Source: Natrononativus amylolyticus (lineage in GTDB: Archaea; Halobacteriota; Halobacteria; Halobacteriales; Natrialbaceae). From it: a DNA stretch of 64,000 bases. Below, piece by piece: positions 40,840 to 43,786 of the stretch (position 1 is its first letter; each line of letters starts with the position of its first letter). The stretch lies in NCBI RefSeq assembly GCF_024362525.1, contig NZ_CP101459.1, forward strand, positions 62,001 through 126,000. Reading direction: 5' to 3'. The translations under genes were made by a program, and so were the position numbers. The notes under the pieces were generated by a model. That model was not told where the DNA came from, did not search any database, and worked only from the letters and a program-made list of their open reading frames with translations.

Positions 40840-40945
40840 CCGAGGAACCGGTTAAGAGCTATCGCTCGAGCAGGTTGCTCGCAATAATACCGATTTGCAT
40901 GGTGACCGAGGATCCGGGAGATCTATAGGCGGTGCAGGGCGAGAA

Positions 40946-40966
40946 CCCCGACCCTTGAGGTCGGGG
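40946..40966. repeat. Left-end hairpin of the IS element
   Basis: CCCCGACC and GGTCGGGG form an 8-base stem around a 5-base loop. It matches the right-end hairpin at 42921-42941 in 20 of 21 bases. TnpA (Y1) proteins bind such subterminal hairpins. Confidence 0.7.
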
Positions 40967-40984
40967 GTGAAGCCCGTCAGAGGA

Positions 40985-41383
40985 CTACACATGCTCACTG
41001 CGGTTAATGTACTGTTCAATCGTCTCTCGACTTACCTCACCTGCCGTCCCCACGTAGAACGACCGTTCCCAACACCCACCACCCCAGTACAACGACCGCA
41101 TCACCTCGGGGTATTCTGACCACAATCTCCGTGCCGTCACGCTCTTCAATCTCGACACGATTTCGCTCGGTGAGTGTTTCGGATGCGCTCCCAGGAACAC
41201 ATGAACGTGGTCAGGTGAGATATGCAACGACCGCAACTCGTAGTCGTTCCGCTCGATAATTGCATGGAACTCAGATTCCAATATCTCTGCAACGTGGTCG
41301 AGAAACGAGTGCCGATACCGAGGGCACCACACGAAATGATATTTGATATTGTACACTGTGTGGTTTGAGCGAGTCGCCTCCAT
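40985..41383 (-). CDS. tnpA: IS200-type Y1 (HUH) transposase TnpA
   Basis: A single-strand transposase of 132 residues, full length for the family. It opens with YNIKYHFVWCPRYRH, contains the HUH metal motif HISPDHVHVFL (His-x-His), and ends with GTAGEVSRETIEQYI. The last holds the region of the catalytic tyrosine (Tyr and neighbouring Gln helix). It cuts and joins single-stranded ends at subterminal hairpins. ATG 41383 is chosen because the family begins MEATRSNH-like; an upstream ATG adds eight residues. All key residues are present, so it may be active. Confidence 0.93.
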   Translation of the reverse strand: MEATRSNHTVYNIKYHFVWCPRYRHSFLDHVAEILESEFHAIIERNDYELRSLHISPDHVHVFLGAHPKHSPSEIVSRLKSVTARRLWSEYPEVMRSLYWGGGCWERSFYVGTAGEVSRETIEQYINRSEHV

Positions 41384-41445
41384 ACACACTGCACGACGTG
41401 ACAACATTTAAGTCAATGTGTTACTAATCATCTACTGCAAACAAG

Positions 41446-41586
41446 ATGGCACGACGATTCACAGTCGATTTCGAGGAGGACTTCTACAAAGACTTCTCGA
41501 AGAAATGCATCGACGAGGACCGAACGAAAGCCGATGTCGTACGCGAACTCCTCCGCGAGTGGACGTACGACGAAGACGCCGAGTGA
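41446..41586 (+). CDS. 46-residue ribbon-helix-helix protein between tnpA and tnpB
   Basis: A very short gene: MARRFTVDFEEDFYKDFSKK, then an acidic helix and RTKADVVRELLREWTYDEDAE. The pattern strand (RRFTVDF), helix, turn, second helix (KADVVRELLREW) is that of a MetJ/Arc/CopG-type DNA-binding protein. The stop is nine bases before the tnpB ATG. It starts within the short spacer shared with divergent tnpA, the right place for a repressor of both. Function is inferred from fold and position. Confidence 0.7.
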   Translation: MARRFTVDFEEDFYKDFSKKCIDEDRTKADVVRELLREWTYDEDAE

Positions 41587-41595
41587 GTGCCACGT

Positions 41596-42744
41596 ATGGA
41601 CATCGAAGACCAAAACCTCACAAAGACCCTTCCACTCCAACTCCAGTTTTACGAGGAGGGCGATGAGGCGAAAGTCTTTGAGTCCACACAAGAATCACGC
41701 TCAGTGTACAACGACACCATCCGCCTCGCCAAACAGGGTGAAGACTGGGATGACATCCGTCGCCAGATGGAGCAAGACGCCAACCTCGTGAAAAACAACA
41801 CGCAATTGGTCGTCAAGAAAGCCCTCGAAGCGATGGGGAACTACTACGAATACGACGACTACAACATGCCCAGTCACACCAAAACTGGGCCATACCCCTT
41901 GCGGATGAACCACAAAGAGGGATACACGCTCTCACTCACCGATGACGGTGACGTTGCGTTCCGTATCTCTCCGAAACCATATCATCCTGTTCGGGGGACG
42001 GTCGTTGGCGACCCGATGCATCTCGACGTGCTGAAAACCGCACTGTCGAGTGACGAGTGGAAGATAGGGACGGCTGAAGCCCTGTTCACGGATGACCGTG
42101 CTGAACTCCACGTCAACGTCACCCACCAGATGCAGACCGTTCGAGACAAAACCGACTCGAAGACGGTGATTGGCGTGGACGTGAACGAGGACAACATCGC
42201 GTTGACCGCGATGGACGAAACGGGAGTTCTCGACACACTCGTCATCGACTTCCCCGAAATTAAGTCTGAGCGCCACCGCTATTTCACGATGAAAAAGCGG
42301 ATGCAGAACGCGGGAAAGCCGTCGTACAAGAACGTGGTTCGTGACCGAGAGTATCGGTTCGTCCACGACAGGCTCCACAAACTGTCCCGGGCCGTAGTCG
42401 AGTTTGCAAAGCGGTTTCCTGACCCGTGCATTGCTCTTGAAGACCTCAAGGATATGCGCGAGTCAATCGACTACGGTACTCGGATGAATCGTCGGCTCCA
42501 CGCGATGCCGTTCCGCGCAACACAAGTGTTCATCGCGTACAAAGCAGCGTTTGAAGGCATTCCGATTGCTTCGGTTGACGCGGAGTACACGAGTCAGGGC
42601 TGTGCGTTGACTGCGTGTGAACATGCCGAGCGAGCGAATCGACGGCGGAAGCGATTCAAATGCAAGTCGTGTGGCCATCAAGACCATGCGGATAGGAATG
42701 CCTCGGTGAACGTTGCGAAGCGTGGATTGGCGAATGTTTGTTAG
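41596..42744 (+). CDS. tnpB: RNA-guided nuclease TnpB of the IS element
   Basis: TnpB of 382 residues. IS605-type TnpBs use an RNA from the element's right end to cut DNA and so keep the element in place; they are ancestors of Cas12. The RuvC residues are intact: IGVDVNEDNIAL (Asp), IALEDLKDM (Glu) and GHQDHADRNAS (Asp). The zinc ribbon is present but odd: the first pair reads CALTAC rather than CxxC, the second FKCKSCG. An in-frame GTG three codons earlier directly abuts the RHH stop; the ATG at 41596 is preferred. Confidence 0.92.
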   Translation: MDIEDQNLTKTLPLQLQFYEEGDEAKVFESTQESRSVYNDTIRLAKQGEDWDDIRRQMEQDANLVKNNTQLVVKKALEAMGNYYEYDDYNMPSHTKTGPYPLRMNHKEGYTLSLTDDGDVAFRISPKPYHPVRGTVVGDPMHLDVLKTALSSDEWKIGTAEALFTDDRAELHVNVTHQMQTVRDKTDSKTVIGVDVNEDNIALTAMDETGVLDTLVIDFPEIKSERHRYFTMKKRMQNAGKPSYKNVVRDREYRFVHDRLHKLSRAVVEFAKRFPDPCIALEDLKDMRESIDYGTRMNRRLHAMPFRATQVFIAYKAAFEGIPIASVDAEYTSQGCALTACEHAERANRRRKRFKCKSCGHQDHADRNASVNVAKRGLANVC

Positions 42745-42945
42745 ATGTGCCTGCTCTCAAGAGCCTCCCTCAAGTTCGGAAGGTGCGACGGTGGGCATCG
42801 GGGCGCGTGAACCGCCCGACCTCATCCCTCGTAACCGTTTGAGACGGCCTTGCTCTGGAACGGGTAGGCGTCAAGGTTGCAGGGAGTGTTAGCAGTTAAT
42901 CTGAGGGAACCACGAAGAAGCCCCGACCCTTGTGGTCGGGGTTGT
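42745..42945 (+). ncRNA. Predicted omega-RNA (reRNA) of TnpB
   Basis: The 200 bases from the tnpB stop to the right-end hairpin hold no gene. In this family the same region, often starting inside tnpB, is transcribed as the guide RNA scaffold; its last bases end at the element border and the guide comes from flanking DNA. The right-end hairpin CCCCGACC/GGTCGGGG (42921-42941) would close the scaffold. The existence of the RNA is inferred from the family, not shown. Confidence 0.45.
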
Positions 42946-42963
42946 TCACCCAATCTAAAAACA

Positions 42964-43060
42964 GTTTCAGACGAACCCTCGTGAGGTTAAGGCGACCAGA
43001 ATATGCAGCAGAGCATCGCCGTGATGGACGGTTTCAGCTGAATCCCTGTGGAGTTGAAGA
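42964..43060 (+). CRISPR. Relic CRISPR: two degenerate repeats and one spacer
   Basis: The 30-base unit at 42964-42993 begins GTTTCAGACGAACCCTCGTG, the start of the repeat usual in haloarchaeal type I-B arrays. A second 30-base unit at 43031-43060 begins GTTTCAGCTGAATCCCTGTG. The two match each other at 20 of 30 positions and differ at separate places from the usual repeat (about 4 and 6 changes). The 37-base spacer is 42994-43030. No cas gene is in the window. It looks like a decayed end of an array. Confidence 0.65.
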
Positions 43061-43103
43061 GGCAATCCCCCACCAACCAAGACCGGATTCACGAGAATCC
43101 AGT

Positions 43104-43304
43104 TCATGACCGAACACCTGTGAAGCGCTGTCGTCCCGATCGCCGTTCGTCGACGGACCAGACATCGCGCTCGAGTCGCACCGTTCCGCCGCCGATCGAC
43201 AACACAGAAAGTAGCTCGTAGCGGATCGCTTTCCGGATCGCTTCGCGAAGCTCTTTTTCGACATCGCCGTACTCCCTTCGTCAGCCCCTCTCGCTCGCGC
43301 TCAT
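43104..43304 (-). pseudogene. Small decayed gene with an in-frame stop
   Basis: From the ATG at 43304 the frame reads MSASERG, a TGA stop, then continues well: YGDVEKELREAIRKAIRYEL, LSVLSIGGGTVRLERDVW and an end at 43104. Apart from the stop it has protein-like composition. The start resembles many small haloarchaeal membrane proteins but the expected hydrophobic part is missing. I cannot name the family. Its 3' end touches the relic CRISPR region. Confidence 0.4.
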
Positions 43305-43434
43305 ACGTAAGCGTTCACGTCGATTCCCTCTGGTTGTACTGGTCGACAAACTAGTTCTACTTCTCATAGGATAGCAGAATTGCCATCGAGTCAGCACGAC
43401 TCCACCAAAATGAATGATGAATGATGACCGTGAC

Positions 43435-43786
43435 CGTGTTAGGTTCGCAGGTTCTATACCGGGTAGTTCAGGTCAAACCGCGTGAAATAAAGCGGGTTGT
43501 CGTGCTGCATCCATCCTCTATATTCAGCAGGCATATTCTGACAGAATTCGGGTAGAACGTTCCGTCTCTGCTGTATACAAAGCGCGAATGTGGCACGAGA
43601 CGAAGGTCAATCTCCGAAGGGTGGTGAACAGTCAGTACATATCAATCAGATTGCGGGACGGCGGTCGGTTCCCTGATAGCTGTCAAAAATAGCGGGTGGA
43701 ATATAGAGGAGGTATCCATCACGCCGATCTCCAGTAATTTGCGTGGTGACTCTGAATGACCCGGTATAGAACCTCTGTCTAACGCG
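43435..43786. mobile_element. MITE-like element with inverted terminal repeats
   Basis: The left end GGTTCTATACCGGGTAGTTC (from 43450) and the right end GACCCGGTATAGAACC (to about 43773) are inverted copies: 15 bases perfect and partial beyond. Short outer arms (CGTGTTAG / CTAACGCG) extend the symmetry to about 43435 and 43786. The 300-base interior has no transposase. Its left interior (43464-43530) recurs at 44802-44860. A flanking target duplication is not obvious. The parent IS is unknown. Confidence 0.5.

What the first reader, a model, noticed from the sequence alone, without database searches (positions are those of the whole stretch)
40940..43060. tnpB transposon directly abutting a relic CRISPR array
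Seen: the right-end hairpin ends at 42941 and a haloarchaeal-type CRISPR repeat begins at 42964; a second degenerate repeat is at 43031, with one 37-base spacer between. Known: haloarchaeal I-B repeats begin GTTTCAGACGAACCCT; leaders lie upstream, on the side where the IS sits. Inference: the IS may have landed in the leader-repeat junction and stopped spacer uptake, leaving the array to decay.
Basis: partly seen in the sequence, partly recalled or inferred. Interest (0 to 1): 0.65.

Follow-up and report, generated by a model that had tools for sequence, protein, structure and literature searches.

The report
Relic CRISPR array beside an IS
A haloarchaeal megaplasmid carries a few decayed repeats left over from a lost CRISPR immune array, with an ordinary, apparently intact jumping gene sitting 14 bases upstream; it is a small genomic fossil and not a working or new system.

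Summary
Two degenerate haloarchaeal type I-B CRISPR repeats (42964-42993, 43031-43060) flank a 37-nt spacer. A third, heavily decayed unit is possible at 43102-43131. An intact IS200/IS605 element (tnpA, a small ribbon-helix-helix-like ORF, tnpB and its omega RNA) runs from 40922 to 42949, fixed by comparison with copies elsewhere. It ends 14 nt before repeat 1.

"Relic array" holds: these are the only two CRISPR-like repeats of any strength in a 98.6%-complete genome, and neither Cas1 nor Cas7 is found. [quoted passage not shown] is not supported. Leaders of intact arrays with this repeat share strong motifs; the 14 nt plus the 86 nt left of the IS have none and score like random DNA. The decay pattern resembles array trailer ends, where terminal repeats are often degenerate. 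With no adaptation genes found, the IS need not have caused the loss. No relative with an empty site was found in 392 genomes. The adjacency (exact element end within 30 nt of an exact repeat start) occurs in this genome alone. A published precedent exists (Haloquadratum walsbyi HBSQ001). Low interest.

The parts
40922..42949 (+). IS200/IS605-family insertion sequence, left end TCTATAGG, right end TTCAC
   Evidence: End comparison with other copies: 7 sequences at the left end and 8 at the right end, window included; flanks all differ. 93% identical over 2031 bp to a copy in Halovivax sp. KZCA124.
40985..41407 (-). tnpA, Y1 (HUH) transposase, 140 aa
   Evidence: Pfam PF01797 Y1_Tnp E 1.4e-36; HVH and a C-terminal Tyr visible in the sequence (motif roles recalled)
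41446..41586 (+). Small ORF, 46 aa, ribbon-helix-helix-like, between tnpA and tnpB
   Evidence: RHH_1 E 0.004 and ParG E 0.0029, both under the curated cut-off; same ORF open in 4 of 4 other copies examined
41587..42744 (+). tnpB (Cas12f-like nuclease); likely start ATG 41596
   Evidence: Pfam PF07282 E 1.5e-16; 95% identical to the Halovivax copy and aligned without gaps over 376 aa
42745..42970 (+). sot2652 / omega RNA match; the scaffold part ends with the element at 42949
   Evidence: Rfam RF02657 63.2 bits, gathering 61, E 2.7e-12; sotRNA equated with omega RNA in PMC12558985 (passages read)
42950..42969 (+). Predicted omega-RNA guide (about 20 nt): 14 nt of flank plus the first nts of repeat 1
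   Evidence: Inferred from the right-end boundary; guide length recalled from TnpB work
42964..42993 (+). Degenerate I-B CRISPR repeat 1
   Evidence: 5 mismatches; RF01337 32.7 bits
42994..43030 (+). Spacer 1, 37 nt, no source found
43031..43060 (+). Degenerate I-B CRISPR repeat 2
   Evidence: 7 mismatches; RF01337 24.2 bits
43061..43101 (+). Possible second spacer, 41 nt
   Evidence: Lies between repeat 2 and the candidate repeat 3
43102..43131 (+). Candidate third, strongly decayed repeat
   Evidence: Gapped match score 10; 0.75% of 45-base windows reach this; tentative

Best explanation
A fossil of the leader-distal (trailer) end of a haloarchaeal type I-B CRISPR array, left after the leader, the rest of the array and the cas genes were lost from this megaplasmid, with an ordinary IS200/IS605 element inserted 14 nt upstream of the first surviving repeat. 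It most likely does nothing as immunity: no Cas1 or Cas7 gene was found in the genome, and both repeats have lost a stem pair. The IS follows its own life cycle: TnpA moves it, and TnpB with the omega RNA would re-cut an empty copy of the site, whose guide happens to run into repeat 1. Shown: the repeats, the spacing, the IS ends, no detectable Cas1, Cas7 or other array, and no recognisable leader. Inferred: trailer origin, order of events, lack of function.
For: Repeats real and unique in the genome. No Cas1 or Cas7; both families ring in Haloferax volcanii in the same searches. No leader. Increasing decay downstream (5 mismatches, 7, then a gapped remnant) as in real trailers: of 14 intact-array ends, 4 have a last repeat with 4 or more mismatches and another 6 have a degenerate unit one period further (gapped score 13 or more). 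One stem pair broken in each repeat (alignments). IS intact and 93% identical to a copy in another genus. RE-array adjacency found in 1 of 392 genomes, so no recurring association at that stringency.
Against: No repeat is seen left of the IS at the array period (best gapped score 6), so the upstream part of the array must have been removed separately or flush with the IS; that event is not visible. No relative shares the locus (1 of 392 genomes, the own one, matches the flanks). Repeat 2 keeps its 3' handle better than repeat 1, which a simple gradient does not predict. The other 4 of 14 array ends examined had no degenerate terminal unit. Neither repeat reaches the Rfam cut-off.
Confidence: 0.8

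Rival explanations
1. One reading: the IS landed at the leader-repeat junction of a live array, blocked spacer uptake, and the array then decayed.
For: The IS is on the leader side of the repeats and very close to repeat 1.
Against: No leader motif or leader-like score on either side of the IS. The IS is intact while the repeats are strongly decayed, suggesting that the decay is the older event (inference). No adaptation gene Cas1 found, and 85 of 125 family genomes, the own one included, have no Cas1 match, so loss needs no IS. A leader of an unrelated type or a decayed one would have been missed.
Confidence: 0.07
2. A minimal, ectopic CRISPR unit of the CreA/CreR kind (two diverged repeats, one spacer, no leader) that once worked, or works with a Cascade supplied in trans, to repress a promoter.
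For: Architecture fits: two diverged 30-nt repeats, one spacer-like sequence and no leader define two-repeat creA genes (PMC8501985, passages).
Against: No Cas7 or Cas1 found. No seed target with TTC PAM in the window (only the spacer itself and one 2-mismatch hit, chance level). Genome hits to the spacer seed are fewer than to the control pattern (34 against 65). The 5' handle of repeat 1, which creA keeps best, has 2 changes. No conserved ortholog in 392 genomes. Candidate third repeat.
Confidence: 0.08
3. The repeats are a chance or unrelated dispersed repeat.
For: Both score under the Rfam gathering cut-off.
Against: Two best hits of the family in the genome lie 67 nt apart in the same orientation, the array period of live arrays. 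No full-length copies elsewhere.
Confidence: 0.02

Closest known systems
Residual CRISPR locus of Haloquadratum walsbyi HBSQ001 (PMC3119063; passages read)
   Same: Haloarchaeon without cas genes, a few leftover repeats and spacers, and a small mobile element (a MITE) inserted within the array.
   Different: HBSQ001 keeps its leader and 5 complete spacers, and a sister strain with the full system exists. Here there is no leader, one clear spacer, a full IS beside the array, and no sister strain found.
Haloarchaeal creA genes (PMC8501985, PMC9458426; passages read)
   Same: Two diverged I-B repeats around one spacer-like sequence, no leader.
   Different: creA lies in or next to cas operons with a creT target promoter close by; here no Cas1 or Cas7 was found and no seed target near the repeats.
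IS200/IS605 elements with divergent tnpA and tnpB and sot2652 omega RNA in haloarchaea (RF02657; PMC12558985, passages read)
   Same: Gene order, subterminal hairpins, omega RNA at the tnpB 3' end.
   Different: Nothing of substance; only the location beside CRISPR repeats is unusual. A small ribbon-helix-helix-like ORF lies between tnpA and tnpB.
IS insertions that inactivate CRISPR-Cas (PMC10359306; passages read)
   Same: IS found at a CRISPR-related locus.
   Different: There the IS disrupts cas genes of otherwise present systems; here no cas gene searched for was found and no causal role for the IS is shown.

Membership tests
Haloarchaeal type I-B CRISPR array | Direct repeats of the I-B sequence at constant period with unique spacers | tested here: met
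   Two degenerate units 67 nt apart, 37-nt spacer; third unit tentative; below the Rfam cut-off
Haloarchaeal type I-B CRISPR array | Leader upstream of the first repeat | tested here: not met
Haloarchaeal type I-B CRISPR array | Associated cas genes in the genome | tested here: not met
   Cas1 0, Cas7 0. Cas6 PF10040 gave one sub-threshold hit, 12.9 bits, but that model also misses Haloferax volcanii in the control, so it says nothing. Other cas families not searched.
CreA-type minimal CRISPR | Seed of the spacer-like sequence matches a nearby promoter with TTC PAM | tested here: not met
CreA-type minimal CRISPR | Transcribed and processed by Cas6 into a crRNA-like RNA | not testable with these tools
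   no RNA data held
IS200/IS605 with tnpA and tnpB | Y1 transposase and TnpB with omega RNA between defined ends | tested here: met
IS200/IS605 with tnpA and tnpB | Activity (transposition, RNA-guided cleavage) | not testable with these tools
   ORFs intact; activity unknown

The most novel reading that the evidence does not exclude
The two-repeat unit is a stand-alone crRNA-like RNA gene (CreA/CreR-like) kept on a megaplasmid to work with a Cascade of whichever host carries one, and the IS beside it has captured part of its repeat as a TnpB guide, so that TnpB would cut alleles of this unit that lack the IS.
Probability: 0.04. Interest if true: 0.5.

Novelty: new member of a known kind. Interest (0 to 1): 0.15.

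Why it matters
It is a small data point on how CRISPR-Cas is lost in haloarchaea: 40 of 125 genomes held for the family have Cas1, and here the last visible trace is a trailer-like stub beside an IS. It also gives a clean placement of the ends and the predicted guide of one tnpA-tnpB element. It does not open a new question.

Tried and rejected
Leader insertion: rejected after comparing 16 array starts (one, from L107, is a truncation artefact without leader motifs; one, from L126, is offset by one base and so scores low) with the joined flanks. Empty site in a relative: one joined-flank search over 392 genomes of the order gave flank matches only in the own genome; only this one genome of its genus is held. 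Syntenic neighbours by the upstream DUF7509 gene: 68 of 125 family genomes have a match, but none of the 29 non-own loci fetched by that search (L035-L063) has a repeat within 9 mismatches. Spacer source: phage records (best E 0.04, 21 nt, human faecal phage), plasmids (best E 0.4 at the top of the list, Azospirillum; 8 of 30 records shown), three exact viral-contig scans (0 matches each), own genome. The second, uncertain spacer was searched alone in phage records only, without a convincing hit. Recurrence of the IS-end/repeat adjacency: 1 of 392, the window itself; exact pattern only, so variants are missed. CreA reading: see the rivals. Cas6 search uninformative because its control missed Haloferax volcanii. 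No structure prediction was run.

Full report
Observation. Two copies of a haloarchaeal I-B CRISPR repeat lie at 42964-42993 and 43031-43060 with a 37-nt spacer between. Against a recalled consensus they have 5 and 7 mismatches; the next best 30-mer in the window has 10. Rfam CRISPR-DR24 finds both with the same coordinates, 32.7 and 24.2 bits, under the gathering score of 35. In the whole genome (3 contigs, 3.99 Mb, 98.6% complete) these are the two best of only four matches at E <= 10. A third unit may exist at 43102-43131: its gapped score of 10 is reached by 0.75% of 45-base windows. I treat it as tentative.

The IS. tnpA (minus strand) is a Y1 transposase and tnpB a Cas12f-like protein. 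Comparison with copies in Halovivax sp. KZCA124, Natronocalculus amylovorans, several haloarchaeal MAGs and a diverged second copy in the own genome puts the left end at 40922 (TCTATAGG) and the right end at 42949 (TTCAC; TTGAC in the own second copy), with unrelated flanks outside. The element is intact: TnpB aligns without gaps to the Halovivax copy over 376 aa. The omega RNA (sot2652) is found at the expected place. The distance from the element end to repeat 1 is 14 nt. The predicted guide is therefore those 14 nt plus the first few bases of repeat 1. With 14 nt of unique flank at its start, such a guide would not be expected to address CRISPR repeats in general (inference).

Genome context. 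The window lies on a 768-kb contig (C2). No Cas1 and no Cas7 were found in the genome, while Haloferax volcanii was found in the same searches. In the family, 40 of 125 held genomes have Cas1, so a genome without it is the common case. The region right of the relic holds a MITE-like element and pieces repeated elsewhere on the same contig.

Leader test. I extracted the 100 nt before 16 array starts from 30 loci of intact or partial arrays (L102, L104-L132). Fifteen of 16 carry the motif GGTCGACGGAA with at most two errors; the one without (from L107) is a truncated array. The joined sequence before repeat 1 has neither this motif nor GTCGACCCC. Its matrix score of -56.3 is random-like (random -65.7, sd 14.7), while 14 of 16 leave-one-out starts score 36.5 to 89.0; the two low ones are the L107 artefact and a one-base offset in L126. 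A gap-tolerant alignment agrees. The test would miss a leader of another type.

Trailer resemblance. Of 14 array ends, 4 have a last repeat with 4 or more mismatches, and 6 others have a degenerate unit one period beyond (gapped score 13-24); the remaining 4 show neither. The window's units, with growing decay downstream, look like such ends. No repeat is found left of the IS at the array period (score 6), so the part of the array that should have preceded repeat 1 is gone.

Relatives. The joined flanks matched no other genome beyond the repeats themselves among 392, so I cannot show an empty site or date the insertion directly. That the IS is younger than the decay is an inference from its intact ORFs and 93% identity to a copy in another genus.

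Rival: CreA-like unit. The anatomy of two-repeat creA genes (two diverged repeats, one spacer-like sequence, no leader; PMC8501985, passages) fits superficially. The tests made here speak against it: no Cas1 or Cas7, no seed target with PAM nearby, and no excess of seed matches in the genome (34 against 65 for the control).

Literature. Searches brought up one close precedent, Haloquadratum walsbyi HBSQ001, with no cas genes, a residual array and a MITE inserted in it (PMC3119063, passages). I did not find this particular locus described, but those four searches cover only the open library held here.

Verdict. A real but ordinary fossil.

Noticed in passing
L100:4005-4034 and L101:4002-4031 (Natribaculum luteum and N. 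breve megaplasmids): A solitary I-B CRISPR repeat, identical in both species, sits in a core that is 88 of 90 bases identical while the upstream flank is 152 of 172. It looks like a conserved ectopic crRNA-like gene (CreA/CreR type); the held genome matching N. luteum (G050) has Cas1. No TTC-seed target was found within the 8-kb loci.
   Followed up: partly
window 41446-41586: A 46-aa ribbon-helix-helix-like ORF between tnpA and tnpB of the IS, open in 4 of 4 other copies examined; possibly a regulator carried by the element.
   Followed up: partly
window 43449-43774: MITE-like stretch with 23-nt inverted ends (AGGTTCTATACCGGGT...) at 91% complementarity, 280 nt apart; related DNA at C1:2404866-2404944 and nearby.
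   Followed up: no
window 43210-43361 and 43347-43452: Adjacent pieces that match two places 16 kb apart elsewhere on the same contig (C2 near 684.5 kb and 667.8 kb, about 92% identical), a sign of rearrangement next to the relic.
   Followed up: no
L033 (C2:175190-176600): A second, tnpB-only relative of the element in the same genome, with nearly identical left end and TTGAC at the right end; its own TnpB-like ORF is quite different in sequence.
   Followed up: partly
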